64,000 nucleotides of DNA from positions 1-64,000 of the forward strand of contig NC_080672.1 of assembly GCF_030247195.1 (NCBI RefSeq), in the 5' to 3' direction. The position numbers and the translations under genes were made by a program. The notes below the pieces were generated by a model. That model saw only the letters and a program-made list of their open reading frames with translations, searched no databases and was not told where the DNA came from. This DNA comes from Topomyia yanbarensis (Eukaryota > Arthropoda > Insecta > Diptera > Culicidae). Of this stretch, positions 40,586 through 64,000 are shown piece by piece; position 1 is the first letter of the stretch; every line of letters begins with the position of its first letter.

Positions 40586-40801
40586 AAAACACCATCTTTC
40601 TAAGTTATTAGACTTTTGAGATATATCATTATCTACTCCATGCTGAAAGCATCTACGCTCACTAGCGCCTCATAGTGAGAGTATTCTAAACTAATCTGTT
40701 ACCGTTGGGTAGTCCTCGACCTCTCGAGCAACTTTGCTGAAGGCAGTACTAGTCTATCTAATCACGTTGTTGAGATCATAGCTGGAAAATGTCATGGTTA
40801 T

Positions 40802-40824
40802 GACCAGTCATCTGGTGACTGGTC
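40802..40824. repeat. Perfect hairpin, 9-bp stem
   Basis: GACCAGTCA, loop TCTGG, TGACTGGTC. It lies at the head of a 250-bp stretch with five GACATGT words (40839-41052). The function is unknown. Confidence 0.7.
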
Positions 40825-41140
40825 GCATGTTTGCTCGTGACATGTACAAGTTGCGGATTCTTGCGACATGTGACACAAGCGCGTGTACTATGACACGATA
40901 CATTTTCCCCGTGACATGTCATAAAATTTGTACATTTTTGAAAACAAAACTGGTTTGTCAAGCGGCTGTACATTTACTGAACTGTGACATGTATGTTCGT
41001 TTGCGAACGGTCGCGACAATAGAAAAACAGGTTTGCTTGTTATGTGACATGTCGACAATGAACCGGTATTGAAAATGGGTAAAATATTGGATACCGTACT
41101 TTGGCGGATAATTGGAAATATAGAAAATGAGATAATTGTA

Positions 41141-41657
41141 TTTCTTTCAACATTTCATAAATTAATATTGTTTGTTATTGCGGTTGAGAGGTGTTGAAAA
41201 TCAATAGTTTTAGACATTTTAAACGCACACTGGGAAGTAAATGCGTCAAAATCGAAAAAAATTAAACTTTTCACAGATAAACATTGTTTGTTATTGCGAA
41301 TTAAGAGGTGTTGAAAATCAATAGTTTTAGACATTTTAAACGCACACTGGGAAGTAAATGCGTCAAAATCGAAAAAAAAATCAACTTTTCACAGATAAAC
41401 ATTGTTTGTTATTGCGAGTTACGAGGTGTTGAAAATCAATAATTTTAGACATTTTAAACGCACACTGGGAAGTAAATGCGTCAAAATCGAAATTTTTTCA
41501 ACTTTTTACAGATAAACATTGTTTGTTATTGCGAGTTACGAGGTATTGAAAATCAATAGTTTTAGACATTTTAAACGCACATTGGGAAGTAAATGCATCG
41601 AAATCGAAAATTTTTCAAATTTTCGCAGATAAACATTGTTTGTTATTACGAGTTGTT
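41141..41657 (-). repeat. 117-bp satellite, inverted left arm, about 4.4 copies
   Basis: These monomers are in the opposite orientation to the main array. Landmarks CGCACACTGGGA-type recur near 41224, 41341, 41459 and 41576, that is every 117-118 bp. They carry the TCGATTTTGACGC form (read in array orientation) also found in the outermost forward monomers, not the TCAATTTTGACGC form of the homogeneous core. They therefore look like older, unhomogenised edge copies. Confidence 0.9.
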
Positions 41658-41721
41658 TACTATTTTTACCTGCAACCGTCGGCGTGGCGGCGCTGGGCAC
41701 ACCTCTAATTTTAAACGCATT
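41658..41721. other. Inversion junction spacer in the satellite
   Basis: A 64-bp stretch between reverse and forward monomers, with a GC-rich patch (GTCGGCGTGGCGGCGCTGGG) unlike the AT-rich satellite. It is the loop of a potential large hairpin. Confidence 0.6.
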
Positions 41722-41911
41722 TTTAAATTTCCATTTTGTCGAAATTACTTCCCGTTGTGCATTTCAAATGTTCAAAACTTTTGATTTTCAAGTCCTAATA
41801 ACTCGGAAAACAAACAACATTCATCTGTAAAAAGTGAATTTTGCGATTTTGACGCATTTACTTCCCCATGTGCGTTTAAAATGTTCAAAACTAGTGATTT
41901 TCATATCCTAG
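41722..41911 (+). repeat. Diverged forward satellite monomers
   Basis: About 1.6 monomers in forward orientation, with variants such as TGTTCAAAACT(A/T)(G/T)TGATTTTCA. They continue directly at 43436 once the inserted Tc1-type element and one TA are taken out. Confidence 0.85.
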
Positions 41912-41913
41912 TA

Positions 41914-43433
41914 CAGTAGGATTCCGTTTTTGGCAACAATTTTATTTTTTGCTGTTGCCAAAACCGGATCCGTGCCAAAAATTGGACCTTATTTTTAAAG
42001 TTTGGATTTTCAATTTACGACTTCAAAAATGTTTCAAGGATTTTTAACCATGTGTGAAATGGAATTAGATGAAAGGAAAAAATAAGAAAATTCAATTTTA
42101 TTCATATGTTTATCAAATTCAGTCTTCGCACAGTGATCACCTTCCATAAAAAAAAGTCGGTCAAAACCTCAAAAGGGATCCGAATTTGATAAAAACTTCA
42201 CATTGGGGTAATTTTACGTCGCTGAATTCATGTTTGGTGTTAATTTATTATTTCTTTTTACCAGAACATTTTGGCACCTGGGGAGGTTTGCAAATTCAAC
42301 ATTTACGAATATAAAGTGCACTATATCTGAAAATGCATTTTCAAAAAGACATCGTAAACTATTTGGGAGCTATCAGTTTTGTATTCCTAAATACGGGCTT
42401 TCGATATGTATTGCAAATTTAGTGCCAAGTTTTGTAGTGACGTTGTATTATGCGGTGTAGCGCATTCATCTGCATTCGACTATAAAAATTGATTCCGTCT
42501 AACACTAGTTACACTGCTACCACATGTATTATACATAAACAATACATTTCTATACTTATTGTTATCATTAAATACGACACATATAGTGTGAAACATACTT
42601 ACGGACATTATACATGCGAGCCACAACATAGCTCCTGCGCCACACACACCCCTCTCCCCTGCCTAACCATGTATCTGACATGAGCAAATATAAAAATAGC
42701 TTTTTCAACACACTAACCTTGCTGGTGTGCCACGAAACTGCTACTTAAGGAAGCTAGAATATTTTCCTATACAATCAATCCGAGTTTTTGACGGAATGCC
42801 ATCTGTAGCTCCTATTTTGTGCGAAAATATCGCCTCTCTTCACTTGGGGTTTCTTTTCGAAACATTTCTTCTCGTTTTCATTGCACTTTTTCAAATGCAC
42901 TTTTTTCACACACCACTGCAAAAACACTCGCGAAACTTTAATCGTTTACTAACAAAACTTCAAATTTTCTGCCAATGCGCAGATGACCAAAGGAAAATGT
43001 TCGGAAACTCATTTGTGCGTTTGAATTTTCACTTCAGATTTCAGTTTTTCCTAATGTAAACAAGCGAGTCGGTGCCTAGCAACGTGGCTTCCGCATATCT
43101 TCACCTTAACCTTTAAATGCATAACGCTTTTTTAAAACAACATTGCGAAAAACATCACAAAATTATCACAGTAAAGTATTGAAACTGTAAAACAATTTTA
43201 ACAAAATTAAAAAAAAAAATGATTTGGGCTTTTGAGGATTAATATATGGGAGTTTGGAAATAAAGTCAAATACAATGTCAATTGATACAAAAAATATCTA
43301 TTGCACATTTTTAAAAGATTTATTATGTACAACAAGAATGTTGACAAAAACGGAACCCATTTGTTGCCAAAATCGGAGTGTGCCAAAATGGGAGTATGCC
43401 AAAAACGGAACGTGACAAAACGGAATCTTACTG
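41914..43433. mobile_element. Tc1/pogo-like element inserted in the satellite
   Basis: The element begins CAGTAGGATTCCGTTTT at 41914 and ends with the inverted AAAACGGAATCTTACTG at 43433. A TA dinucleotide lies on each side (41912-41913 and 43434-43435), as in Tc1/mariner-superfamily insertion; CAGT ends suit the pogo group. Subterminal TTTGGCA and TGCCAAAA words recur near both ends. Flanking bases join into a normal monomer (CTAG-TA-ACTCG). No transposase frame is recognised (an open frame at 42727-43059 has no motifs), so it is non-autonomous. Confidence 0.85.
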
Positions 43434-43435
43434 TA

Positions 43436-43773
43436 ACTCGAAAAACAAAAAAAAAATAGCGAGAAGTTGAAAAATTTTCCATTTTGACGCAATTACTTAC
43501 TAATGTGTGTCTAAAAAGTCCAAAACTATCGTTTTTCAACTTCACGTAACTAGCAATAACAAACAATATTTATCTGTGAAAAGTTGAAAATTTTTCGATT
43601 TTGACGCATTTACTTTCAAGTGTACGTTTAAAATGTCTAAAACTATTGATTTTCTACTCCTCGTAACTCGCAATAACAAGCAATATTTATCTGTGGAAAG
43701 GTTAAAAGTTTTCGATTTTGACGCATTTATTTCCCAGTGTGCGTTTAAAATGTCTAAAACTATTGATTTTCAA
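43436..43773 (+). repeat. Diverged edge monomers of the satellite
   Basis: Nearly three monomers with TCGATTTTGACGC, AAGTGTACG or ATGTGTGTC variants not seen in the homogeneous core. Divergence falls step by step from left to right toward 43774. Confidence 0.9.
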
Positions 43774-44241
43774 CACCTCTTAACTCGTAATAACAAACAA
43801 TGTTTATCTGTGAAAAGTTGAAAATTTTTCAATTTTGACGCATTTACTTCCCAGTGGGCGTTTAAAATGTCTAAAACTATTGATTTTCAACTCCTCGTAG
43901 CTTGCAATAACGAACAATGTTTATCTGTGAAAAGATGAAAAATTTTCAATTTTGACGCATTTACTTCCCAGTGTGCGTTTAAAATGTCTAAAACTATTGA
44001 TTTTCAATACCTCTTAACTCGCAATAACAAACAATATTTATCTGTGAAGAGATGAAAATTTTTCAATTTTGACGCATTTACCTCCCAGTGTGCGTTTAAA
44101 ATGTCTAAAACTATTGATTTTCAACTCCTCGTAGCTTGCAATAACAAACAATATTTATCTGTGAAGAGATGAAAATTTTTCAATTTTGACGCATTTACTT
44201 CCCAGTGGGCGTTTAAAATGTCTAAAACTATTGATTTTCAA

Positions 44242-47200
44242 CTCCTCGTAGCTTGCAATAACGAACAATGTTTATCTGTGAAAAGATGAAAAATTTTCAA
44301 TTTTGACGCATTTACTTCCCAGTGTGCGTTTAAAATGTCTAAAACTATTGATTTTCAATACCTCTTAACTCGCAATAACAAACAATATTTATCTGTGAAG
44401 AGATGAAAATTTTTCAATTTTGACGCATTTACCTCCCAGTGTGCGTTTAAAATGTCTAAAACTATTGATTTTCAAAACCTCGTAACTCGCAATAACAAAA
44501 AATATTGATCTGTGAAAAGTTGAAACATTTTCGATTTTGATGCATTTACTTCCTAATGTGCGTTTAAAATGTCTAAAACAATTGATTTTCAACTCCTCGT
44601 AGCTTGCAATAACAAACAATATTTATCTGTGAGAAGATGAAAATTTTTCAATTTTGACGCATTTACTTCCCAGTGTGCGTTTAAAATGTCTAAAACTATT
44701 GATTTTCAACACCTCTTAACTCGCAATAACAAACAATATTTATCTGTGAAGAGATGAAAATTTTTCAATTTTGACGCATTTACCTCCCAGTGTGCGTTTA
44801 AAATGTCTAAAACTATTGATTTTCAACTCCTCGTAGCTTGCAATAACAAACAATATTTATCTGTGAAGAGATGAAAATTTTTCAATTTTGACGCATTTAC
44901 TTCCCAGTGGGCGTTTAAAATGTCTAAAACTATTGATTTTCAACTCCTCGTAGCTTGCAATAACGAACAATGTTTATCTGTGAAAAGATGAAAAATTTTC
45001 AATTTTGACGCATTTACTTCCCAGTGTGCGTTTAAAATGTCTAAAACGATTGATTTTCAACACCTCTTAACTCGCAATAACAAACAATATTTATCTGTGA
45101 AGAGATGAAAATTTTTCAATTTTGACGCATTTACCTCCCAGTGTGCGTTTAAAATGTCTAAAACTATTGATTTTCAACACCTCTTAACTCGCAATAACAA
45201 ACAATGTTTATCTGTGAAAAGTTGAAATTTTTTCAATTTTGACGCATTTACTTCCCAGTGGGCGTTTAAAATGTCTAAAACGATTGATTTTCAACACCTC
45301 TTAACTCGCAATAACAAACAATATTTATCTGTGAAGAGATGAAAATTTTTCAATTTTGACGCATTTACCTCCCAGTGTGCGTTTAAAATGTCTAAAACTA
45401 TTGATTTTCAACACCTCTTAACTCGCAAAAACAAACAATGTTTATCTGTGAAAAGTTGAAAATTTTTCAATTTTGACGCATTTACTTCCCAGTGGGCGTT
45501 TAAAATGTCTAAAACTATTGATTTTCAACTCCTCGTAGCTTGCAATAACGAACAATGTTTATCTGTGAAAAGATGAAAAATTTTCAATTTTGACGCATTT
45601 ACTTCCCAGTGTGCGTTTAAAATGTCTAAAACTATTGATTTTCAACTCCTCGTAGCTTGCAATAACAAACAATATTTATCTGTGAGAAGATGAAAATTTT
45701 TCAATTTTGACGCATTTACTTCCCCTTGTGCGTTTAAAATGTCTAAAACGATTGATTTTCAACACCTCTTAACTCGCAATAACAAACAATATTTATCTGT
45801 GAAGAGATGAAAATTTTTCAATTTTGACGCATTTACCTCCCAGTGTGCGTTTAAAATGTCTAAAACTATTGATTTTCAACACCTCTTAACTCGTAATAAC
45901 AAACAATGTTTATCTGTGAAAAGTTGAAAATTTTTCAATTTTGACGCATTTACTTCCCAGTGGGCGTTTAAAATGTCTAAAACTATTGATTTTCAACTCC
46001 TCGTAGCTTGCAATAACGAACAATGTTTATCTGTGAAAAGATGAAAAATTTTCAATTTTGACGCATTTACTTCCCAGTGTGCGTTTAAAATGTCTAAAAC
46101 TATTGATTTTCAATACCTCTTAACTCGCAATAACAAACAATATTTATCTGTGAAGAGATGAAAATTTTTCAATTTTGACGCATTTACCTCCCAGTGTGCG
46201 TTTAAAATGTCTAAAACTATTGATTTTCAACTCCTCGTAGCTTGCAATAACGAACAATGTTTATCTGTGAAAAGATGAAAAATTTTCAATTTTGACGCAT
46301 TTACTTCCCAGTGTGCGTTTAAAATGTCTAAAACTATTGATTTTCAATACCTCTTAACTCGCAATAACAAACAATATTTATCTGTGAAGAGATGAAAATT
46401 TTTCAATTTTGACGCATTTACCTCCCAGTGTGCGTTTAAAATGTCTAAAACTATTGATTTTCAAAACCTCGTAACTCGCAATAACAAAAAATATTGATCT
46501 GTGAAAAGTTGAAACATTTTCGATTTTGATGCATTTACTTCCTAATGTGCGTTTAAAATGTCTAAAACAATTGATTTTCAACTCCTCGTAGCTTGCAATA
46601 ACAAACAATATTTATCTGTGAGAAGATGAAAATTTTTCAATTTTGACGCATTTACTTCCCAGTGTGCGTTTAAAATGTCTAAAACTATTGATTTTCAACA
46701 CCTCTTAACTCGCAATAACAAACAATATTTATCTGTGAAGAGATGAAAATTTTTCAATTTTGACGCATTTACCTCCCAGTGTGCGTTTAAAATGTCTAAA
46801 ACTATTGATTTTCAACTCCTCGTAGCTTGCAATAACAAACAATATTTATCTGTGAAGAGATGAAAATTTTTCAATTTTGACGCATTTACTTCCCAGTGGG
46901 CGTTTAAAATGTCTAAAACTATTGATTTTCAACTCCTCGTAGCTTGCAATAACGAACAATGTTTATCTGTGAAAAGATGAAAAATTTTCAATTTTGACGC
47001 ATTTACTTCCCAGTGTGCGTTTAAAATGTCTAAAACGATTGATTTTCAACACCTCTTAACTCGCAATAACAAACAATATTTATCTGTGAAGAGATGAAAA
47101 TTTTTCAATTTTGACGCATTTACCTCCCAGTGTGCGTTTAAAATGTCTAAAACTATTGATTTTCAACACCTCTTAACTCGCAATAACAAACAATGTTTAT

Positions 47201-48570
47201 CTGTGAAAAGTTGAAATTTTTTCAATTTTGACGCATTTACTTCCCAGTGGGCGTTTAAAATGTCTAAAACGATTGATTTTCAACACCTCTTAACTCGCAA
47301 TAACAAACAATATTTATCTGTGAAGAGATGAAAATTTTTCAATTTTGACGCATTTACCTCCCAGTGTGCGTTTAAAATGTCTAAAACTATTGATTTTCAA
47401 CACCTCTTAACTCGCAAAAACAAACAATGTTTATCTGTGAAAAGTTGAAAATTTTTCAATTTTGACGCATTTACTTCCCAGTGGGCGTTTAAAATGTCTA
47501 AAACTATTGATTTTCAACTCCTCGTAGCTTGCAATAACAAACAATATTTATCTGTGAGAAGATGAAAATTTTTCAATTTTGACGCATTTACTTCCCCTTG
47601 TGCGTTTAAAATGTCTAAAACGATTGATTTTCAACACCTCTTAACTCGCAATAACAAACAATATTTATCTGTGAAGAGATGAAAATTTTTCAATTTTGAC
47701 GCATTTACTTCCCAGTGGGCGTTTAAAATGTCTAAAACTATTGATTTTCAACTCCTCGTAGCTTGCAATAACGAACAATGTTTATCTGTGAAAAGATGAA
47801 AAATTTTCAATTTTGACGCATTTACTTCCCAGTGTGCGTTTAAAATGTCTAAAACTATTGATTTTCAATACCTCTTAACTCGCAATAACAAACAATATTT
47901 ATCTGTGAAGAGATGAAAATTTTTCAATTTTGACGCATTTACCTCCCAGTGTGCGTTTAAAATGTCTAAAACTATTGATTTTCAAAACCTCGTAACTCGC
48001 AATAACAAAAAATATTGATCTGTGAAAAGTTGAAACATTTTCGATTTTGATGCATTTACTTCCTAATGTGCGTTTAAAATGTCTAAAACAATTGATTTTC
48101 AACTCCTCGTAGCTTGCAATAACAAACAATATTTATCTGTGAGAAGATGAAAATTTTTCAATTTTGACGCATTTACTTCCCAGTGTGCGTTTAAAATGTC
48201 TAAAACTATTGATTTTCAACACCTCTTAACTCGCAATAACAAACAATATTTATCTGTGAAGAGATGAAAATTTTTCAATTTTGACGCATTTACCTCCCAG
48301 TGTGCGTTTAAAATGTCTAAAACTATTGATTTTCAACTCCTCGTAGCTTGCAATAACAAACAATATTTATCTGTGAAGAGATGAAAATTTTTCAATTTTG
48401 ACGCATTTACTTCCCAGTGGGCGTTTAAAATGTCTAAAACTATTGATTTTCAACTCCTCGTAGCTTGCAATAACGAACAATGTTTATCTGTGAAAAGATG
48501 AAAAATTTTCAATTTTGACGCATTTACTTCCCAGTGTGCGTTTAAAATGTCTAAAACGATTGATTTTCAA
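44242..48570 (+). repeat. 17-monomer higher-order unit, three variants
   Basis: A run of monomer types that includes the rare AACCTCGTAACTCG-head monomer begins at 44242, 46231 and 47752. The first two starts are 1,989 bp apart (17 monomers) and match for 11 monomers. The third start is 1,521 bp further (13 monomers) and matches for 7. In this part the rare monomer is followed by a TTCCCAGTGTG tail, whereas after 50 kb it is followed by TTCCCCTTGTG. Confidence 0.85.
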
Positions 48571-50223
48571 CACCTCTTAACTCGCAATAACAAACAATGT
48601 TTATCTGTGAAAAGTTGAAATTTTTTCAATTTTGACGCATTTACTTCCCAGTGGGCGTTTAAAATGTCTAAAACGATTGATTTTCAACACCTCTTAACTC
48701 GCAATAACAAACAATATTTATCTGTGAAGAGATGAAAATTTTTCAATTTTGACGCATTTACCTCCCAGTGTGCGTTTAAAATGTCTAAAACTATTGATTT
48801 TCAACACCTCTTAACTCGCAATAACAAACAATGTTTATCTGTGAAAAGTTGAAATTTTTTCAATTTTGACGCATTTACTTCCCAGTGGGCGTTTAAAATG
48901 TCTAAAACGATTGATTTTCAACACCTCTTAACTCGCAATAACAAACAATATTTATCTGTGAAGAGATGAAAATTTTTCAATTTTGACGCATTTACCTCCC
49001 AGTGTGCGTTTAAAATGTCTAAAACTATTGATTTTCAACACCTCTTAACTCGCAAAAACAAACAATGTTTATCTGTGAAAAGTTGAAAATTTTTCAATTT
49101 TGACGCATTTACTTCCCAGTGGGCGTTTAAAATGTCTAAAACTATTGATTTTCAACTCCTCGTAGCTTGCAATAACGAACAATGTTTATCTGTGAAAAGA
49201 TGAAAAATTTTCAATTTTGACGCATTTACTTCCCAGTGTGCGTTTAAAATGTCTAAAACTATTGATTTTCAACTCCTCGTAGCTTGCAATAACAAACAAT
49301 ATTTATCTGTGAGAAGATGAAAATTTTTCAATTTTGACGCATTTACTTCCCCTTGTGCGTTTAAAATGTCTAAAACGATTGATTTTCAACACCTCTTAAC
49401 TCGCAATAACAAACAATATTTATCTGTGAAGAGATGAAAATTTTTCAATTTTGACGCATTTACCTCCCAGTGTGCGTTTAAAATGTCTAAAACTATTGAT
49501 TTTCAACACCTCTTAACTCGTAATAACAAACAATGTTTATCTGTGAAAAGTTGAAAATTTTTCAATTTTGACGCATTTACTTCCCAGTGGGCGTTTAAAA
49601 TGTCTAAAACTATTGATTTTCAACTCCTCGTAGCTTGCAATAACGAACAATGTTTATCTGTGAAAAGATGAAAAATTTTCAATTTTGACGCATTTACTTC
49701 CCAGTGTGCGTTTAAAATGTCTAAAACTATTGATTTTCAATACCTCTTAACTCGCAATAACAAACAATATTTATCTGTGAAGAGATGAAAATTTTTCAAT
49801 TTTGACGCATTTACCTCCCAGTGTGCGTTTAAAATGTCTAAAACTATTGATTTTCAACTCCTCGTAGCTTGCAATAACAAACAATATTTATCTGTGAAGA
49901 GATGAAAATTTTTCAATTTTGACGCATTTACTTCCCAATGGGCGTTTAAAATGTCTAAAACTATTGATTTTCAACTCCTCGTAGCTTGCAATAACAAACA
50001 ATATTTATCTGTGAGAAGATGAAAATTTTTCAATTTTGACGCATTTACTTCCCCTTGTGCGTTTAAAATGTCTAAAACGATTGATTTTCAACACCTCTTA
50101 ACTCGCAATAACAAACAATATTTATCTGTGAAGAGATGAAAATTTTTCAATTTTGACGCATTTACCTCCCAGTGTGCGTTTAAAATGTCTAAAACTATTG
50201 ATTTTCAACACCTCTTAACTCGT

Positions 50224-53200
50224 AATAACAAACAATGTTTATCTGTGAAAAGTTGAAAATTTTTCAATTTTGACGCATTTACTTCCCAGTGGGCGTTTAA
50301 AATGTCTAAAACTATTGATTTTCAACTCCTCGTAGCTTGCAATAACGAACAATGTTTATCTGTGAAAAGATGAAAAATTTTCAATTTTGACGCATTTACT
50401 TCCCAGTGTGCGTTTAAAATGTCTAAAACTATTGATTTTCAATACCTCTTAACTCGCAATAACAAACAATATTTATCTGTGAAGAGATGAAAATTTTTCA
50501 ATTTTGACGCATTTACCTCCCAGTGTGCGTTTAAAATGTCTAAAACTATTGATTTTCAAAACCTCGTAACTCGCAATAACAAAAAATATTGATCTGTGAA
50601 AAGTTGAAACATTTTCGATTTTGATGCATTTACTTCCTAATGTGCGTTTAAAATGTCTAAAACAATTGATTTTCAACTCCTCGTAGCTTGCAATAACAAA
50701 CAATATTTATCTGTGAGAAGATGAAAATTTTTCAATTTTGACGCATTTACTTCCCCTTGTGCGTTTAAAATGTCTAAAACGATTGATTTTCAACACCTCT
50801 TAACTCGCAATAACAAACAATATTTATCTGTGAAGAGATGAAAATTTTTCAATTTTGACGCATTTACCTCCCAGTGTGCGTTTAAAATGTCTAAAACTAT
50901 TGATTTTCAACACCTCTTAACTCGCAATAACAAACAATGTTTATCTGTGAAAAGTTGAAATTTTTTCAATTTTGACGCATTTACTTCCCAGTGGGCGTTT
51001 AAAATGTCTAAAACGATTGATTTTCAACACCTCTTAACTCGCAATAACAAACAATATTTATCTGTGAAGAGATGAAAATTTTTCAATTTTGACGCATTTA
51101 CCTCCCAGTGTGCGTTTAAAATGTCTAAAACTATTGATTTTCAACACCTCTTAACTCGCAATAACAAACAATGTTTATCTGTGAAAAGTTGAAATTTTTT
51201 CAATTTTGACGCATTTACTTCCCAATGGGCGTTTAAAATGTCTAAAACTATTGATTTTCAACTCCTCGTAGCTTGCAATAACAAACAATATTTATCTGTG
51301 AGAAGATGAAAATTTTTCAATTTTGACGCATTTACTTCCCCTTGTGCGTTTAAAATGTCTAAAACGATTGATTTTCAACACCTCTTAACTCGCAATAACA
51401 AACAATATTTATCTGTGAAGAGATGAAAATTTTTCAATTTTGACGCATTTACCTCCCAGTGTGCGTTTAAAATGTCTAAAACTATTGATTTTCAACACCT
51501 CTTAACTCGTAATAACAAACAATGTTTATCTGTGAAAAGTTGAAAATTTTTCAATTTTGACGCATTTACTTCCCAGTGGGCGTTTAAAATGTCTAAAACT
51601 ATTGATTTTCAACTCCTCGTAGCTTGCAATAACGAACAATGTTTATCTGTGAAAAGATGAAAAATTTTCAATTTTGACGCATTTACTTCCCAGTGTGCGT
51701 TTAAAATGTCTAAAACTATTGATTTTCAATACCTCTTAACTCGCAATAACAAACAATATTTATCTGTGAAGAGATGAAAATTTTTCAATTTTGACGCATT
51801 TACCTCCCAGTGTGCGTTTAAAATGTCTAAAACTATTGATTTTCAAAACCTCGTAACTCGCAATAACAAAAAATATTGATCTGTGAAAAGTTGAAACATT
51901 TTCGATTTTGATGCATTTACTTCCTAATGTGCGTTTAAAATGTCTAAAACAATTGATTTTCAACTCCTCGTAGCTTGCAATAACAAACAATATTTATCTG
52001 TGAGAAGATGAAAATTTTTCAATTTTGACGCATTTACTTCCCCTTGTGCGTTTAAAATGTCTAAAACGATTGATTTTCAACACCTCTTAACTCGCAATAA
52101 CAAACAATATTTATCTGTGAAGAGATGAAAATTTTTCAATTTTGACGCATTTACCTCCCAGTGTGCGTTTAAAATGTCTAAAACTATTGATTTTCAACAC
52201 CTCTTAACTCGCAATAACAAACAATGTTTATCTGTGAAAAGTTGAAATTTTTTCAATTTTGACGCATTTACTTCCCAGTGGGCGTTTAAAATGTCTAAAA
52301 CGATTGATTTTCAACACCTCTTAACTCGCAATAACAAACAATATTTATCTGTGAAGAGATGAAAATTTTTCAATTTTGACGCATTTACCTCCCAGTGTGC
52401 GTTTAAAATGTCTAAATCTATTGATTTTCAACACCTCTTAACTCGCAAAAACAAACAATGTTTATCTGTGAAAAGTTGAAAATTTTTCAATTTTGACGCA
52501 TTTACTTCCCAGTGGGCGTTTAAAATGTCTAAAACTATTGATTTTCAACTCCTCGTAGCTTGCAATAACGAACAATGTTTATCTGTGAAAAGATGAAAAA
52601 TTTTCAATTTTGACGCATTTACTTCCCAGTGTGCGTTTAAAATGTCTAAAACTATTGATTTTCAATACCTCTTAACTCGCAATAACAAACAATATTTATC
52701 TGTGAAGAGATGAAAATTTTTCAATTTTGACGCATTTACCTCCCAGTGTGCGTTTAAAATGTCTAAAACTATTGATTTTCAACACCTCTTAACTCGTAAT
52801 AACAAACAATGTTTATCTGTGAAAAGTTGAAAATTTTTCAATTTTGACGCATTTACTTCCCAGTGGGCGTTTAAAATGTCTAAAACTATTGATTTTCAAC
52901 TCCTCGTAGCTTGCAATAACGAACAATGTTTATCTGTGAAAAGATGAAAAATTTTCAATTTTGACGCATTTACTTCCCAGTGTGCGTTTAAAATGTCTAA
53001 AACTATTGATTTTCAATACCTCTTAACTCGCAATAACAAACAATATTTATCTGTGAAGAGATGAAAATTTTTCAATTTTGACGCATTTACCTCCCAGTGT
53101 GCGTTTAAAATGTCTAAAACTATTGATTTTCAACTCCTCGTAGCTTGCAATAACAAACAATATTTATCTGTGAAGAGATGAAAATTTTTCAATTTTGACG

Positions 53201-55342
53201 CATTTACTTCCCAGTGGGCGTTTAAAATGTCTAAAACTATTGATTTTCAACTCCTCGTAGCTTGCAATAACAAACAATATTTATCTGTGAAGAGATGAAA
53301 ATTTTTCAATTTTGACGCATTTACTTCCCAGTGGGCGTTTAAAATGTCTAAAACTATTGATTTTCAACTCCTCGTAGCTTGCAATAACGAACAATGTTTA
53401 TCTGTGAAAAGATGAAAAATTTTCAATTTTGACGCATTTACTTCCCAGTGTGCGTTTAAAATGTCTAAAACTATTGATTTTCAATACCTCTTAACTCGCA
53501 ATAACAAACAATATTTATCTGTGAAGAGATGAAAATTTTTCAATTTTGACGCATTTACCTCCCAGTGTGCGTTTAAAATGTCTAAAACTATTGATTTTCA
53601 ACTCCTCGTAGCTTGCAATAACAAACAATATTTATCTGTGAAGAGATGAAAATTTTTCAATTTTGACGCATTTACTTCCCAGTGGGCGTTTAAAATGTCT
53701 AAAACTATTGATTTTCAACTCCTCGTAGCTTGCAATAACGAACAATGTTTATCTGTGAAAAGATGAAAAATTTTCAATTTTGACGCATTTACTTCCCAGT
53801 GTGCGTTTAAAATGTCTAAAACTATTGATTTTCAATACCTCTTAACTCGCAATAACAAACAATATTTATCTGTGAAGAGATGAAAATTTTTCAATTTTGA
53901 CGCATTTACCTCCCAGTGTGCGTTTAAAATGTCTAAAACTATTGATTTTCAACTCCTCGTAGCTTGCAATAACAAACAATATTTATCTGTGAGAAGATGA
54001 AAATTTTTCAATTTTGACGCATTTACTTCCCCTTGTGCGTTTAAAATGTCTAAAACGATTGATTTTCAACACCTCTTAACTCGCAATAACAAACAATATT
54101 TATCTGTGAAGAGATGAAAATTTTTCAATTTTGACGCATTTACCTCCCAGTGTGCGTTTAAAATGTCTAAAACTATTGATTTTCAACACCTCTTAACTCG
54201 CAATAACAAACAATGTTTATCTGTGAAAAGTTGAAATTTTTTCAATTTTGACGCATTTACTTCCCAGTGGGCGTTTAAAATGTCTAAAACGATTGATTTT
54301 CAACACCTCTTAACTCGCAATAACAAACAATATTTATCTGTGAAGAGATGAAAATTTTTCAATTTTGACGCATTTACCTCCCAGTGTGCGTTTAAAATGT
54401 CTAAAACTATTGATTTTCAACTCCTCGTAGCTTGCAATAACAAACAATATTTATCTGTGAAGAGATGAAAATTTTTCAATTTTGACGCATTTACCTCCCA
54501 GTGTGCGTTTAAAATGTCTAAAACTATTGATTTTCAACTCCTCGTAGCTTGCAATAACGAACAATGTTTATCTGTGAAAAGATGAAAAATTTTCAATTTT
54601 GACGCATTTACTTCCCCTTGTGCGTTTAAAATGTCTAAAACGATTGATTTTCAACACCTCTTAACTCGCAATAACAAACAATATTTATCTGTGAAGAGAT
54701 GAAAATTTTTCAATTTTGACGCATTTACCTCCCAGTGTGCGTTTAAAATGTCTAAAACTATTGATTTTCAACTCCTCGTAGCTTGCAATAACAAACAATA
54801 TTTATCTGTGAAGAGATGAAAATTTTTCAATTTTGACGCATTTACCTCCCAGTGTGCGTTTAAAATGTCTAAAACTATTGATTTTCAACTCCTCGTAGCT
54901 TGCAATAACAAACAATATTTATCTGTGAGAAGATGAAAATTTTTCAATTTTGACGCATTTACTTCCCCTTGTGCGTTTAAAATGTCTAAAACGATTGATT
55001 TTCAACACCTCTTAACTCGCAATAACAAACAATATTTATCTGTGAAGAGATGAAAATTTTTCAATTTTGACGCATTTACCTCCCAGTGTGCGTTTAAAAT
55101 GTCTAAAACTATTGATTTTCAACACCTCTTAACTCGCAATAACAAACAATGTTTATCTGTGAAAAGTTGAAATTTTTTCAATTTTGACGCATTTACTTCC
55201 CAGTGGGCGTTTAAAATGTCTAAAACGATTGATTTTCAACACCTCTTAACTCGCAATAACAAACAATATTTATCTGTGAAGAGATGAAAATTTTTCAATT
55301 TTGACGCATTTACCTCCCAGTGTGCGTTTAAAATGTCTAAAA
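50224..55342 (+). repeat. Higher-order block, first copy of an 8.5-kb-spaced duplication
   Basis: The order of monomer types from 50224 to about 54885 is repeated from 58765 to about 63426 at an offset of 8,541 bp (73 monomers). After one additional monomer in the second copy, the match continues to 64000 at an offset of 8,658 bp (74 monomers). The rare variant TCTAAATCT at 52411 has its partner at 60952, exactly 8,541 bp on. Confidence 0.9.
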
Positions 55343-58300
55343 CTATTGATTTTCAACTCCTCGTAGCTTGCAATAACAAACAATATTTATCTGTGAAGAG
55401 ATGAAAATTTTTCAATTTTGACGCATTTACCTCCCAGTGTGCGTTTAAAATGTCTAAAACTATTGATTTTCAACTCCTCGTAGCTTGCAATAACGAACAA
55501 TGTTTATCTGTGAAAAGATGAAAAATTTTCAATTTTGACGCATTTACTTCCCAGTGTGCGTTTAAAATGTCTAAAACTATTGATTTTCAATACCTCTTAA
55601 CTCGCAATAACAAACAATATTTATCTGTGAAGAGATGAAAATTTTTCAATTTTGACGCATTTACCTCCCAGTGTGCGTTTAAAATGTCTAAAACTATTGA
55701 TTTTCAACTCCTCGTAGCTTGCAATAACAAACAATATTTATCTGTGAAGAGATGAAAATTTTTCAATTTTGACGCATTTACTTCCCAGTGGGCGTTTAAA
55801 ATGTCTAAAACTATTGATTTTCAACTCCTCGTAGCTTGCAATAACAAACAATATTTATCTGTGAAGAGATGAAAATTTTTCAATTTTGACGCATTTACTT
55901 CCCAGTGGGCGTTTAAAATGTCTAAAACTATTGATTTTCAACTCCTCGTAGCTTGCAATAACGAACAATGTTTATCTGTGAAAAGATGAAAAATTTTCAA
56001 TTTTGACGCATTTACTTCCCAGTGTGCGTTTAAAATGTCTAAAACTATTGATTTTCAATACCTCTTAACTCGCAATAACAAACAATATTTATCTGTGAAG
56101 AGATGAAAATTTTTCAATTTTGACGCATTTACCTCCCAGTGTGCGTTTAAAATGTCTAAAACTATTGATTTTCAACTCCTCGTAGCTTGCAATAACAAAC
56201 AATATTTATCTGTGAAGAGATGAAAATTTTTCAATTTTGACGCATTTACTTCCCAGTGGGCGTTTAAAATGTCTAAAACTATTGATTTTCAACTCCTCGT
56301 AGCTTGCAATAACGAACAATGTTTATCTGTGAAAAGATGAAAAATTTTCAATTTTGACGCATTTACTTCCCAGTGTGCGTTTAAAATGTCTAAAACTATT
56401 GATTTTCAATACCTCTTAACTCGCAATAACAAACAATATTTATCTGTGAAGAGATGAAAATTTTTCAATTTTGACGCATTTACCTCCCAGTGTGCGTTTA
56501 AAATGTCTAAAACTATTGATTTTCAACTCCTCGTAGCTTGCAATAACAAACAATATTTATCTGTGAGAAGATGAAAATTTTTCAATTTTGACGCATTTAC
56601 TTCCCCTTGTGCGTTTAAAATGTCTAAAACGATTGATTTTCAACACCTCTTAACTCGCAATAACAAACAATATTTATCTGTGAAGAGATGAAAATTTTTC
56701 AATTTTGACGCATTTACCTCCCAGTGTGCGTTTAAAATGTCTAAAACTATTGATTTTCAACACCTCTTAACTCGCAATAACAAACAATGTTTATCTGTGA
56801 AAAGTTGAAATTTTTTCAATTTTGACGCATTTACTTCCCAGTGGGCGTTTAAAATGTCTAAAACTATTGATTTTCAATACCTCTTAACTCGCAATAACAA
56901 ACAATATTTATCTGTGAAGAGATGAAAATTTTTCAATTTTGACGCATTTACCTCCCAGTGTGCGTTTAAAATGTCTAAAACTATTGATTTTCAACTCCTC
57001 GTAGCTTGCAATAACAAACAATATTTATCTGTGAAGAGATGAAAATTTTTCAATTTTGACGCATTTACTTCCCAGTGGGCGTTTAAAATGTCTAAAACTA
57101 TTGATTTTCAACTCCTCGTAGCTTGCAATAACGAACAATGTTTATCTGTGAAAAGATGAAAAATTTTCAATTTTGACGCATTTACTTCCCAGTGTGCGTT
57201 TAAAATGTCTAAAACTATTGATTTTCAATACCTCTTAACTCGCAATAACAAACAATATTTATCTGTGAAGAGATGAAAATTTTTCAATTTTGACGCATTT
57301 ACCTCCCAGTGTGCGTTTAAAATGTCTAAAACTATTGATTTTCAACTCCTCGTAGCTTGCAATAACAAACAATATTTATCTGTGAGAAGATGAAAATTTT
57401 TCAATTTTGACGCATTTACTTCCCCTTGTGCGTTTAAAATGTCTAAAACGATTGATTTTCAACACCTCTTAACTCGCAATAACAAACAATATTTATCTGT
57501 GAAGAGATGAAAATTTTTCAATTTTGACGCATTTACCTCCCAGTGTGCGTTTAAAATGTCTAAAACTATTGATTTTCAACACCTCTTAACTCGCAATAAC
57601 AAACAATGTTTATCTGTGAAAAGTTGAAATTTTTTCAATTTTGACGCATTTACTTCCCAGTGGGCGTTTAAAATGTCTAAAACGATTGATTTTCAACACC
57701 TCTTAACTCGCAATAACAAACAATATTTATCTGTGAAAAGTTGAAAATTTTTCAATTTTGACGCATTTACTTCCCAGTGGGCGTTTAAAATGTCTAAAAC
57801 TATTGATTTTCAACTCCTCGTAGCTTGCAATAACGAACAATGTTTATCTGTGAAAAGATGAAAAATTTTCAATTTTGACGCATTTACTTCCCAGTGTGCG
57901 TTTAAAATGTCTAAAACTATTGATTTTCAATACCTCTTAACTCGCAATAACAAACAATATTTATCTGTGAAGAGATGAAAATTTTTCAATTTTGACGCAT
58001 TTACCTCCCAGTGTGCGTTTAAAATGTCTAAAACTATTGATTTTCAACTCCTCGTAGCTTGCAATAACAAACAATATTTATCTGTGAAGAGATGAAAATT
58101 TTTCAATTTTGACGCATTTACCTCCCAGTGTGCGTTTAAAATGTCTAAAACTATTGATTTTCAACTCCTCGTAGCTTGCAATAACGAACAATGTTTATCT
58201 GTGAAAAGATGAAAAATTTTCAATTTTGACGCATTTACTTCCCCTTGTGCGTTTAAAATGTCTAAAACGATTGATTTTCAACACCTCTTAACTCGCAATA

Positions 58301-58764
58301 ACAAACAATATTTATCTGTGAAGAGATGAAACATTTTCGATTTTGATGCATTTACTTCCTAATGTGCGTTTAAAATGTCTAAAACTATTGATTTTCAACA
58401 CCTCTTAACTCGCAATAACAAACAATGTTTATCTGTGAAAAGTTGAAATTTTTTCAATTTTGACGCATTTACTTCCCAGTGGGCGTTTAAAATGTCTAAA
58501 ACGATTGATTTTCAACACCTCTTAACTCGCAATAACAAACAATATTTATCTGTGAAGAGATGAAAATTTTTCAATTTTGACGCATTTACCTCCCAGTGTG
58601 CGTTTAAAATGTCTAAAACTATTGATTTTCAACACCTCTTAACTCGCAAAAACAAACAATGTTTATCTGTGAAAAGTTGAAATTTTTTCAATTTTGACGC
58701 ATTTACTTCCCAGTGGGCGTTTAAAATGTCTAAAACGATTGATTTTCAACACCTCTTAACTCGC

Positions 58765-61700
58765 AATAACAAACAATGTTTATCTGTGAAAAGTTGAAAA
58801 TTTTTCAATTTTGACGCATTTACTTCCCAGTGGGCGTTTAAAATGTCTAAAACTATTGATTTTCAACTCCTCGTAGCTTGCAATAACGAACAATGTTTAT
58901 CTGTGAAAAGATGAAAAATTTTCAATTTTGACGCATTTACTTCCCAGTGTGCGTTTAAAATGTCTAAAACTATTGATTTTCAATACCTCTTAACTCGCAA
59001 TAACAAACAATATTTATCTGTGAAGAGATGAAAATTTTTCAATTTTGACGCATTTACCTCCCAGTGTGCGTTTAAAATGTCTAAAACTATTGATTTTCAA
59101 AACCTCGTAACTCGCAATAACAAAAAATATTGATCTGTGAAAAGTTGAAACATTTTCGATTTTGATGCATTTACTTCCTAATGTGCGTTTAAAATGTCTA
59201 AAACAATTGATTTTCAACTCCTCGTAGCTTGCAATAACAAACAATATTTATCTGTGAGAAGATGAAAATTTTTCAATTTTGACGCATTTACTTCCCCTTG
59301 TGCGTTTAAAATGTCTAAAACGATTGATTTTCAACACCTCTTAACTCGCAATAACAAACAATATTTATCTGTGAAGAGATGAAAATTTTTCAATTTTGAC
59401 GCATTTACCTCCCAGTGTGCGTTTAAAATGTCTAAAACTATTGATTTTCAACACCTCTTAACTCGCAATAACAAACAATGTTTATCTGTGAAAAGTTGAA
59501 ATTTTTTCAATTTTGACGCATTTACTTCCCAGTGGGCGTTTAAAATGTCTAAAACGATTGATTTTCAACACCTCTTAACTCGCAATAACAAACAATATTT
59601 ATCTGTGAAGAGATGAAAATTTTTCAATTTTGACGCATTTACCTCCCAGTGTGCGTTTAAAATGTCTAAAACTATTGATTTTCAACACCTCTTAACTCGC
59701 AATAACAAACAATGTTTATCTGTGAAAAGTTGAAATTTTTTCAATTTTGACGCATTTACTTCCCAATGGGCGTTTAAAATGTCTAAAACTATTGATTTTC
59801 AACTCCTCGTAGCTTGCAATAACAAACAATATTTATCTGTGAGAAGATGAAAATTTTTCAATTTTGACGCATTTACTTCCCCTTGTGCGTTTAAAATGTC
59901 TAAAACGATTGATTTTCAACACCTCTTAACTCGCAATAACAAACAATATTTATCTGTGAAGAGATGAAAATTTTTCAATTTTGACGCATTTACCTCCCAG
60001 TGTGCGTTTAAAATGTCTAAAACTATTGATTTTCAACACCTCTTAACTCGTAATAACAAACAATGTTTATCTGTGAAAAGTTGAAAATTTTTCAATTTTG
60101 ACGCATTTACTTCCCAGTGGGCGTTTAAAATGTCTAAAACTATTGATTTTCAACTCCTCGTAGCTTGCAATAACGAACAATGTTTATCTGTGAAAAGATG
60201 AAAAATTTTCAATTTTGACGCATTTACTTCCCAGTGTGCGTTTAAAATGTCTAAAACTATTGATTTTCAATACCTCTTAACTCGCAATAACAAACAATAT
60301 TTATCTGTGAAGAGATGAAAATTTTTCAATTTTGACGCATTTACCTCCCAGTGTGCGTTTAAAATGTCTAAAACTATTGATTTTCAAAACCTCGTAACTC
60401 GCAATAACAAAAAATATTGATCTGTGAAAAGTTGAAACATTTTCGATTTTGATGCATTTACTTCCTAATGTGCGTTTAAAATGTCTAAAACAATTGATTT
60501 TCAACTCCTCGTAGCTTGCAATAACAAACAATATTTATCTGTGAGAAGATGAAAATTTTTCAATTTTGACGCATTTACTTCCCCTTGTGCGTTTAAAATG
60601 TCTAAAACGATTGATTTTCAACACCTCTTAACTCGCAATAACAAACAATATTTATCTGTGAAGAGATGAAAATTTTTCAATTTTGACGCATTTACCTCCC
60701 AGTGTGCGTTTAAAATGTCTAAAACTATTGATTTTCAACACCTCTTAACTCGCAATAACAAACAATGTTTATCTGTGAAAAGTTGAAATTTTTTCAATTT
60801 TGACGCATTTACTTCCCAGTGGGCGTTTAAAATGTCTAAAACGATTGATTTTCAACACCTCTTAACTCGCAATAACAAACAATATTTATCTGTGAAGAGA
60901 TGAAAATTTTTCAATTTTGACGCATTTACCTCCCAGTGTGCGTTTAAAATGTCTAAATCTATTGATTTTCAACACCTCTTAACTCGCAAAAACAAACAAT
61001 GTTTATCTGTGAAAAGTTGAAAATTTTTCAATTTTGACGCATTTACTTCCCAGTGGGCGTTTAAAATGTCTAAAACTATTGATTTTCAACTCCTCGTAGC
61101 TTGCAATAACGAACAATGTTTATCTGTGAAAAGATGAAAAATTTTCAATTTTGACGCATTTACTTCCCAGTGTGCGTTTAAAATGTCTAAAACTATTGAT
61201 TTTCAATACCTCTTAACTCGCAATAACAAACAATATTTATCTGTGAAGAGATGAAAATTTTTCAATTTTGACGCATTTACCTCCCAGTGTGCGTTTAAAA
61301 TGTCTAAAACTATTGATTTTCAACACCTCTTAACTCGTAATAACAAACAATGTTTATCTGTGAAAAGTTGAAAATTTTTCAATTTTGACGCATTTACTTC
61401 CCAGTGGGCGTTTAAAATGTCTAAAACTATTGATTTTCAACTCCTCGTAGCTTGCAATAACGAACAATGTTTATCTGTGAAAAGATGAAAAATTTTCAAT
61501 TTTGACGCATTTACTTCCCAGTGTGCGTTTAAAATGTCTAAAACTATTGATTTTCAATACCTCTTAACTCGCAATAACAAACAATATTTATCTGTGAAGA
61601 GATGAAAATTTTTCAATTTTGACGCATTTACCTCCCAGTGTGCGTTTAAAATGTCTAAAACTATTGATTTTCAACTCCTCGTAGCTTGCAATAACAAACA

Positions 61701-64000
61701 ATATTTATCTGTGAAGAGATGAAAATTTTTCAATTTTGACGCATTTACTTCCCAGTGGGCGTTTAAAATGTCTAAAACTATTGATTTTCAACTCCTCGTA
61801 GCTTGCAATAACAAACAATATTTATCTGTGAAGAGATGAAAATTTTTCAATTTTGACGCATTTACTTCCCAGTGGGCGTTTAAAATGTCTAAAACTATTG
61901 ATTTTCAACTCCTCGTAGCTTGCAATAACGAACAATGTTTATCTGTGAAAAGATGAAAAATTTTCAATTTTGACGCATTTACTTCCCAGTGTGCGTTTAA
62001 AATGTCTAAAACTATTGATTTTCAATACCTCTTAACTCGCAATAACAAACAATATTTATCTGTGAAGAGATGAAAATTTTTCAATTTTGACGCATTTACC
62101 TCCCAGTGTGCGTTTAAAATGTCTAAAACTATTGATTTTCAACTCCTCGTAGCTTGCAATAACAAACAATATTTATCTGTGAAGAGATGAAAATTTTTCA
62201 ATTTTGACGCATTTACTTCCCAGTGGGCGTTTAAAATGTCTAAAACTATTGATTTTCAACTCCTCGTAGCTTGCAATAACGAACAATGTTTATCTGTGAA
62301 AAGATGAAAAATTTTCAATTTTGACGCATTTACTTCCCAGTGTGCGTTTAAAATGTCTAAAACTATTGATTTTCAATACCTCTTAACTCGCAATAACAAA
62401 CAATATTTATCTGTGAAGAGATGAAAATTTTTCAATTTTGACGCATTTACCTCCCAGTGTGCGTTTAAAATGTCTAAAACTATTGATTTTCAACTCCTCG
62501 TAGCTTGCAATAACAAACAATATTTATCTGTGAGAAGATGAAAATTTTTCAATTTTGACGCATTTACTTCCCCTTGTGCGTTTAAAATGTCTAAAACGAT
62601 TGATTTTCAACACCTCTTAACTCGCAATAACAAACAATATTTATCTGTGAAGAGATGAAAATTTTTCAATTTTGACGCATTTACCTCCCAGTGTGCGTTT
62701 AAAATGTCTAAAACTATTGATTTTCAACACCTCTTAACTCGCAATAACAAACAATGTTTATCTGTGAAAAGTTGAAATTTTTTCAATTTTGACGCATTTA
62801 CTTCCCAGTGGGCGTTTAAAATGTCTAAAACGATTGATTTTCAACACCTCTTAACTCGCAATAACAAACAATATTTATCTGTGAAGAGATGAAAATTTTT
62901 CAATTTTGACGCATTTACCTCCCAGTGTGCGTTTAAAATGTCTAAAACTATTGATTTTCAACTCCTCGTAGCTTGCAATAACAAACAATATTTATCTGTG
63001 AAGAGATGAAAATTTTTCAATTTTGACGCATTTACCTCCCAGTGTGCGTTTAAAATGTCTAAAACTATTGATTTTCAACTCCTCGTAGCTTGCAATAACG
63101 AACAATGTTTATCTGTGAAAAGATGAAAAATTTTCAATTTTGACGCATTTACTTCCCCTTGTGCGTTTAAAATGTCTAAAACGATTGATTTTCAACACCT
63201 CTTAACTCGCAATAACAAACAATATTTATCTGTGAAGAGATGAAAATTTTTCAATTTTGACGCATTTACCTCCCAGTGTGCGTTTAAAATGTCTAAAACT
63301 ATTGATTTTCAACTCCTCGTAGCTTGCAATAACAAACAATATTTATCTGTGAAGAGATGAAAATTTTTCAATTTTGACGCATTTACCTCCCAGTGTGCGT
63401 TTAAAATGTCTAAAACTATTGATTTTCAACTCCTCGTAGCTTGCAATAACAAACAATATTTATCTGTGAAGAGATGAAAATTTTTCAATTTTGACGCATT
63501 TACCTCCCAGTGTGCGTTTAAAATGTCTAAAACTATTGATTTTCAACTCCTCGTAGCTTGCAATAACAAACAATATTTATCTGTGAGAAGATGAAAATTT
63601 TTCAATTTTGACGCATTTACTTCCCCTTGTGCGTTTAAAATGTCTAAAACGATTGATTTTCAACACCTCTTAACTCGCAATAACAAACAATATTTATCTG
63701 TGAAGAGATGAAAATTTTTCAATTTTGACGCATTTACCTCCCAGTGTGCGTTTAAAATGTCTAAAACTATTGATTTTCAACACCTCTTAACTCGCAATAA
63801 CAAACAATGTTTATCTGTGAAAAGTTGAAATTTTTTCAATTTTGACGCATTTACTTCCCAGTGGGCGTTTAAAATGTCTAAAACGATTGATTTTCAACAC
63901 CTCTTAACTCGCAATAACAAACAATATTTATCTGTGAAGAGATGAAAATTTTTCAATTTTGACGCATTTACCTCCCAGTGTGCGTTTAAAATGTCTAAAA
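58765..64000 (+). repeat. Higher-order block, second copy
   Basis: Partner of 50224-55342. It begins after a C/T difference at 50223 versus 58764 (CGTAATAAC against CGCAATAAC). It contains one extra monomer near 63430 and reaches the window end still matching, so its true length is unknown. Confidence 0.9.

What the first reader, a model, noticed from the sequence alone, without database searches (positions are those of the whole stretch)
43774..64000. A 20-kb, phase-perfect 117-bp satellite with higher-order structure
About 173 consecutive monomers keep an exact 117-bp period. The rare AACCTCGTAACTCG-head monomer occurs seven times, at spacings of 17, 13, 22, 11, 62 and 11 monomers. Type order is strongly non-random: the TACCTCTT head almost always follows the GAACAATGTT monomer, and CACCTCTT follows the TTCCCCTTGTG tail. 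This is higher-order repeat organisation, well known for primate alpha satellite and less described for mosquito satellites. It may mark a (peri)centromeric or otherwise heterochromatic domain.
Basis: partly seen in the sequence, partly recalled or inferred. Interest (0 to 1): 0.75.

Follow-up and report, generated by a model that had tools for sequence, protein, structure and literature searches.

The report
Transposon arm grown into giant satellite
The 117-base repeat array is one arm of a single jumping-gene insertion that seems to have grown to about 400 repeat units after landing, so it looks like a transposon turning into satellite DNA rather than a centromere.

Summary
In detail: a 117-bp array starts near 43.4 kb, keeps exact phase, and its monomer order is far from random. 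It does not end with the window: it runs to C3:90,757, about 404 monomers in 47.3 kb, and 400 phased monomers fall into only 28 sequences. The interpretation needs changing. Nineteen other places in the genome show that the array is one arm of a non-coding transposon: left end (40,777), short inverted array (4.4 monomers), 1.76-kb core, direct array, right end (C3:91,133). Nine of nine other copies with both ends in hand have perfect 8-bp target-site duplications; the window copy has the same 8 bp on both sides, with one extra base on the right. Ten copies with both arms readable have right arms of 3.9-32 monomers; this one has about 404. Its single-copy parts carry 5 private changes in 2,505 bases, yet 398 array monomers carry no singleton change, so the array probably expanded or was homogenised long after insertion. 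Higher-order structure is mostly nested block duplication; one tandem 19-monomer unit lies outside the window. Closest precedent: Tetris/TIR-220 of Drosophila virilis. Not tested: reads, alleles, transposase, other giant arrays.

The parts
40769..40776 (.). Left copy of the 8-bp target-site duplication, GTTGAGAT (right copy outside the window at C3:91,135-91,142, after one extra A)
40777..41145 (+). Left end of the transposon, begins CATAGCTGGAA; holds GACATGTC-type subterminal motifs
   Evidence: alignment with other copies
41145..41654 (-). Left arm: 4.4 monomers of 117 bp in inverted orientation
41654..43417 (+). Core of about 1.76 kb without recognisable coding capacity
41728..41903 (+). 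1.5 diverged monomers inside the core (83-86% identical to the consensus), present in other copies too
43417..64000 (+). Right arm: the 117-bp array, continuing outside the window to C3:90,757 (about 404 monomers); the right end of the transposon follows at C3:90,758-91,133 (ends TTCCAACTATG)
50324..54886 (+). Block of 39 monomers (4,563 bp) repeated with identical monomers at 58,865-63,427 (lag 73)

Best explanation
The array is the right arm of one insertion of a non-autonomous, foldback-like DNA transposon, most likely hAT-like. Shown: the stretch C3:40,777-91,133 (50.4 kb) has the ends, the inverted left arm and the core of a family present at many places in this genome, and it is bounded by the same 8 bp on both sides. 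Inferred: the element landed with a right arm of ordinary size (about 4-32 monomers). Repeated unequal exchange between sister chromatids or homologues, or gene conversion and replication-based duplication, in blocks of roughly 10-70 monomers, then lengthened and homogenised that arm to about 404 monomers, leaving diverged monomers at the left edge and a patchwork of identical blocks inside. The array has no coding role; it is a young satellite forming inside a transposon.
For: Same layout, left end / inverted array / core / direct array / right end, at dispersed loci wherever enough of a copy was in the fetched stretch. Common terminus CATAG(C/T)TGGAA and perfect 8-bp duplications in 9 of 9 other copies with both ends; GTTGAGAT on both sides of the window copy. 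400 phased monomers give 28 sequences, and variants seen only once sit only in the first two monomers. The single-copy parts of this insertion carry 5 private substitutions in 2,505 bp, so about 93 (roughly 30-220 from the Poisson range of 5) would be expected in 398 monomers had the array been that long since insertion; no singleton was seen. Giant-array monomers are more alike (mean identity 0.939, 9.6% identical pairs) than a pool of dispersed ones (0.881). The closest of the copies compared, L028+L032, has monomers matching types 22, 1, 8 and 5 at 100% of aligned columns in a 32-monomer arm. Smaller block expansions occur in other copies: a 6-monomer unit four to five times in L018 and a similar run of 13 and 10 monomers in L028+L032.
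Against: The right-hand duplicate is preceded by one extra A, so the window duplication is not perfect in register. Left arms of dispersed copies are about as homogeneous (mean identity mostly 0.91-0.95) as the giant array (0.939); only right arms are clearly more diverse. Lack of singletons could also come from assembly polishing. No transposase was found or could be sought; no reads and no second allele were available, because the genome search did not answer in 26 requests. The subterminal motif GACATGTC is absent from the consensus monomer, so a Galileo-like binding-site role of the repeats has no support here.
Confidence: 0.87

Rival explanations
1. Assembly artefact: the real right arm is much shorter and the assembler or polisher multiplied and homogenised blocks.
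For: No singleton variants in 398 monomers and long identical blocks up to 39 monomers; no reads could be examined.
Against: No N in C3:1-104,000; the blocks are nested at many lags and differ in detail (lag-73 identity is 96.3% overall, not 100%); smaller expansions of the same kind occur in other copies.
Confidence: 0.12
2. A functional (peri)centromeric satellite; the transposon copies elsewhere carry fragments of it.
For: Tandem, AT-rich, ordered monomers.
Against: Position 43 kb from a scaffold start; transposon ends and duplication around it; no CENP-B-like box in 28 of 28 types, which is weak evidence in insects (recalled).
Confidence: 0.03
3. Two transposon copies flank an independent satellite, or a transposon inserted into a pre-existing array, so that the two ends do not belong together.
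For: The right-hand duplicate is off by one base.
Against: Eight identical bases at both outer ends; orientation and order as in single copies; core-to-array junction 99.6% identical over 244 bp to the copy L028.
Confidence: 0.05
4. Same transposon, but the long arm arose by rolling-circle amplification of excised repeats and re-insertion, or by break-induced replication, rather than by unequal exchange.
For: A tandem 19-monomer unit in about three exact copies is what circular or template-switch amplification would give.
Against: Most blocks recur at many different lags, more like repeated unequal exchange; neither was tested directly.
Confidence: 0.2

Closest known systems
Tetris and its TIR-220 repeats, Drosophila virilis and D. 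americana (Dias et al. 2014, PMC4079207; abstract, Results part 1 of 2 and Discussion read)
   Same: Foldback-like and non-autonomous, without coding core; AT-rich tandem repeats of variable number in the inverted arms; 8-10 bp duplications; expanded arrays more homogeneous (94%) than repeats inside complete elements (87%); expansion took place inside the element.
   Different: 117 bp instead of about 220 bp; arrays there up to 66 copies in contigs, here about 404 in one insertion with both ends in one sequence; here the outer 370 bp of the two ends are inverted repeats of each other over about 11 bp only; 8-bp duplications in 9 of 9 complete copies. Sequence relation to Tetris was not tested.
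Galileo (P superfamily) of Drosophila (PMC3573991, passages; PMC3688188, abstract)
   Same: Foldback-like terminal repeats with internal tandem repeats whose number varies between the two arms.
   Different: Two or three copies of a repeat of about 210 bp in the F subfamily of D. mojavensis; 7-bp duplications; repeats hold transposase binding sites in Galileo, whereas here the subterminal motif is absent from the consensus monomer.
hAT transposons such as Hermes (PMC10368747, passages)
   Same: 8-bp duplications with T at position 2 and A at position 7 favoured (13 of 20 here); short terminal repeats; short subterminal repeats.
   Different: No transposase found; the terminus CATAG departs from the hAT consensus as I recall it; superfamily only suggested.
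Muta1 and other Mutator-like elements of Aedes aegypti (PMC5225508, passages)
   Same: 8-9 bp duplications, subterminal tandem repeats, many non-autonomous copies.
   Different: 12 of 14 families have terminal repeats over 100 bp; their tandem repeats are 9-15 bp; Muta1 has mixed 8- and 9-bp duplications.

Membership tests
Foldback-like DNA transposon | inverted arms made of tandem repeats around a core | tested here: met
Foldback-like DNA transposon | target-site duplications at the outer ends | tested here: met
   9 of 9 copies with both ends perfect (8, 1); window copy: same 8 bp with one extra base
Foldback-like DNA transposon | the outermost parts of the arms are long inverted repeats of each other | tested here: not met
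   left and right ends share about 11 bp (CATAGYTGGAA) and short motifs; hence foldback-like, not filed as a classical foldback
hAT superfamily | 8-bp target-site duplication | tested here: met
hAT superfamily | nTnnnnAn target preference, as reported for Hermes (PMC10368747) | tested here: inconclusive
   13 of 20 half-sites in 10 duplications, one-sided P = 0.0025 at 0.32 expected; small sample, pattern compared after the duplications were seen
hAT superfamily | hAT transposase acting on the same ends | not tested
   genome search for the hAT family did not answer
P superfamily / Mutator superfamily | transposase of that superfamily acting on the same ends | not tested
   no search was sent for these families
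Satellite DNA | long head-to-tail array of near-identical non-coding units | tested here: met
Regular higher-order-repeat satellite (alpha-satellite type) | one multi-monomer unit repeated in tandem through the array | tested here: not met
   nested blocks in the window; a 19-monomer unit about 3 times at 82.6-89.2 kb only
Centromeric satellite | CENP-A chromatin | not testable with these tools
   position near a scaffold start argues against

The most novel reading that the evidence does not exclude
One cut-and-paste transposon insertion, still bounded by its ends and target-site duplication, has recently grown to 50 kb by lengthening one arm to about 404 monomers while the other stayed at 4.4: a complete intermediate between a mobile element and a satellite. 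Because an inverted arm of the same monomer lies beside the array, read-through transcripts could form hairpins and feed small-RNA silencing that favours heterochromatin and further growth.
Probability: 0.3. Interest if true: 0.65.

Novelty: new member of a known kind. Interest (0 to 1): 0.5.

Why it matters
How satellites are born is often inferred after the founding transposon has lost its ends. Here the founder family with ordinary arms of 4-32 monomers and one derivative of about 404 monomers, with ends and duplication in place, lie in one assembly. Order of events (insertion first, expansion later) can be read from private mutations, and the rate and mode of expansion could be tested in populations.

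Tried and rejected
Centromere or pericentromere: not supported, on position, dispersal and lack of a CENP-B-like box. Known RNA families or tRNAs in the window: none reported. Coding core: only short frames, up to about 120 aa; five window frames, two of them overlapping the core, were scanned against Pfam and only the neighbouring reverse transcriptase matched. Single-strand DNA folding of three monomer-long pieces gave z-scores 1.00, -1.91 and -0.65, not convincing. Link to the Aedes satellite piRNA tapiR1: eight papers listed, listing and abstract starts seen; no sequence comparison made. Species by scaffold lengths: no paper found. A 117-bp mosquito satellite or a hAT foldback satellite in print: not found (listings only; the library lacks most subscription papers and preprints).

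In one search monomers were cut by a regular expression and some pieces came out short; counts and identities therefore rest mainly, and one search is used only for the unit in L018. In one search, 328 of 379 HMM hits (at least 100 columns) were kept and 51 dropped; this pool includes the window's own left arm, core piece and last monomers. In one search only blast pieces covering at least 90% of each query part at 88% identity or more were used (13-15 copies per part, the window copy included). Of the 40 places scored, ten (all from the top half of the list) were fetched.
Full report
Observation. The 117-bp array is real and more than chance. The two order rules hold in one direction each: 23 of 24 TACCTCTT heads follow a GAACAATGTT monomer and 19 of 19 TTCCCCTTGTG tails are followed by CACCTCTT in the window (56 of 57 and 40 of 40 in the whole array), while 8 of 31 GAACAATGTT monomers and 50 of 69 CACCTCTT heads in the window are not in these pairs. 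Neighbour order carries 2.43 bits of mutual information against 1.04 (sd 0.05) in shuffles; the longest repeated run of types is 39 monomers, against at most 15 in first-order Markov strings. The window is C3:1-64000 of a 1.168-Gb assembly. The array continues to C3:90,757. Cut in phase from 43,538, 400 monomers fall into 28 sequences; the 17 types with at least four copies differ from the consensus by 2-12 sites or, for type 0, by 2, and the mean pairwise difference is 6.1%.

Higher-order structure. 311 of 400 monomers lie in runs of 15 or more that recur elsewhere in the array. The largest recurring runs are 39 monomers at lag 73, 37 at lag 19, 27 at lag 86 and 26 at lags 91 and 164. Of these only the lag-19 one overlaps itself as a tandem unit (about 3 copies, 82.6-89.2 kb, outside the window). 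The rest is nested block duplication, so 'higher-order repeat' in the alpha-satellite sense is only partly right.

What it is. Monomer matches elsewhere led to nine loci (L013-L021), and a search with the left end to ten more (L022-L031). Where enough of a copy is present they share one layout: a left end of 369 bp, an inverted array, a core of about 1.76 kb containing 1.5 diverged monomers, a direct array, and a right end of 376 bp. Departures: L019 has no core; L018 and L021 lack about 0.5 kb of it, L031 about 0.4 kb; L013 and L023 carry further DNA in it; L015, L017 and L029 have an interrupted right array; L018 shows no right end and L016 no left half in the fetched stretch; L022 and L027 show only the left end, left arm and part of the core; others are cut by the end of the stretch. 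Left and right ends begin CATAG(C/T)TGGAA and share GACATGTC-type motifs, but are otherwise different. Nine copies had both ends in hand (L019, L020, L021, L023, L026, L029, L030, L031; L028+L032) and all nine have perfect 8-bp duplications. The window copy shows GTTGAGAT on both sides, the right one after one extra A. So the satellite is, on this evidence, an arm of one insertion.

How it got large. In the ten copies with both arms and both ends readable (the nine above and L014, whose left end is partly masked), left arms have 2.0-9.4 and right arms 3.9-32 monomers; here they have 4.4 and about 404. Incomplete copies reach about 15 (left) and 31.8 (right, L018). The left end, core and right end of this insertion carry 5 changes not seen in the 12-14 other copies aligned, in 2,505 bases; other copies range from 0.2% to 2.6%. 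At 0.2%, 398 array monomers should show about 93 private changes; none occurs as a singleton, and all variants seen once are in the two outermost monomers at the left. Two further rare variants occur in 2 and 4 monomers. The simplest reading is insertion first, expansion and homogenisation much later, with the edge escaping. With a recalled insect mutation rate of about 3e-9 per base per generation this is of the order of 0.7 million generations for the insertion and less than about 20,000 for the last homogenisation; these figures are rough. The closest of the copies compared (L028+L032) matches types 22, 1, 8 and 5 at 100% of aligned columns in an arm of 32, and L018 has a six-monomer unit four to five times, so arms of this family seem prone to block expansion in general. 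Against a simple homogenisation story, left arms of dispersed copies are mostly as homogeneous (0.91-0.95) as the giant array (0.939), while right arms are more diverse (mostly 0.82-0.90). Unequal exchange is inferred, not shown.

Family. The ten duplications favour T at position 2 and A at position 7 (13 of 20, one-sided P = 0.0025), the pattern reported for the hAT element Hermes (PMC10368747, passages). With 8-bp duplications, short terminal repeats and short subterminal repeats this suggests hAT; the terminal CATAG does not fit the hAT consensus that I recall, and P or Mutator elements (8-9 bp duplications in Aedes aegypti, PMC5225508, passages) are not excluded. No transposase could be sought because the genome search did not complete.

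Comparison. Tetris of Drosophila virilis is the same kind of event: a foldback-like non-autonomous element whose TIR-220 arrays grew to satellite-like length inside the element (PMC4079207; abstract, Results part 1 and Discussion). A 2025 review names growth of short internal arrays within transposons as a route to satellites (PMC12628747, passages). New here are the scale, the single sequence that spans ends, duplication and array, and the timing argument.

Limits. Assembly inflation or polishing cannot be excluded without reads. Copy number of the family is a lower bound (203 first-look candidates, 40 scored, all 40 at 99-100% identity to the left end). Whether other giant arrays exist was not tested: one search listed only part of its 228 matches.

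Noticed in passing
window 37612-39708 (-): A 698-aa reverse transcriptase frame (Pfam RVT_1); best relative 63% identical and unnamed, best named one 54% (Wyeomyia smithii). A LINE-like element just left of the transposon.
   Followed up: partly
window about 50-130: By eye and from recalled motifs, a tRNA-like stretch with A- and B-box-like sequences at the very start of the scaffold (sequence printed), possibly a SINE; ARAGORN and Rfam report nothing there.
   Followed up: no
L018 3493-7217 (C1:92.93 Mb): Another copy of the transposon has a 32-monomer arm with a 6-monomer unit (702 bp) repeated four to five times, a separate small higher-order expansion.
   Followed up: partly
L020 1684-1790 and 5482-5609 (C1:7.59 Mb): This copy seems to be inserted into an older relative whose left end is 80-87% identical: nested insertion within one family.
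   Followed up: no
L015 and L017 (C2:229.6 and 209.5 Mb): Both copies have left arms of about 15 monomers within the stretch and a right array interrupted at a similar place, perhaps one subfamily or a segmental duplication.
   Followed up: no
C3:90,453 (outside the window): A 55-bp partial monomer (about 62 bp missing) breaks the phase of the array shortly before its right end.
   Followed up: partly
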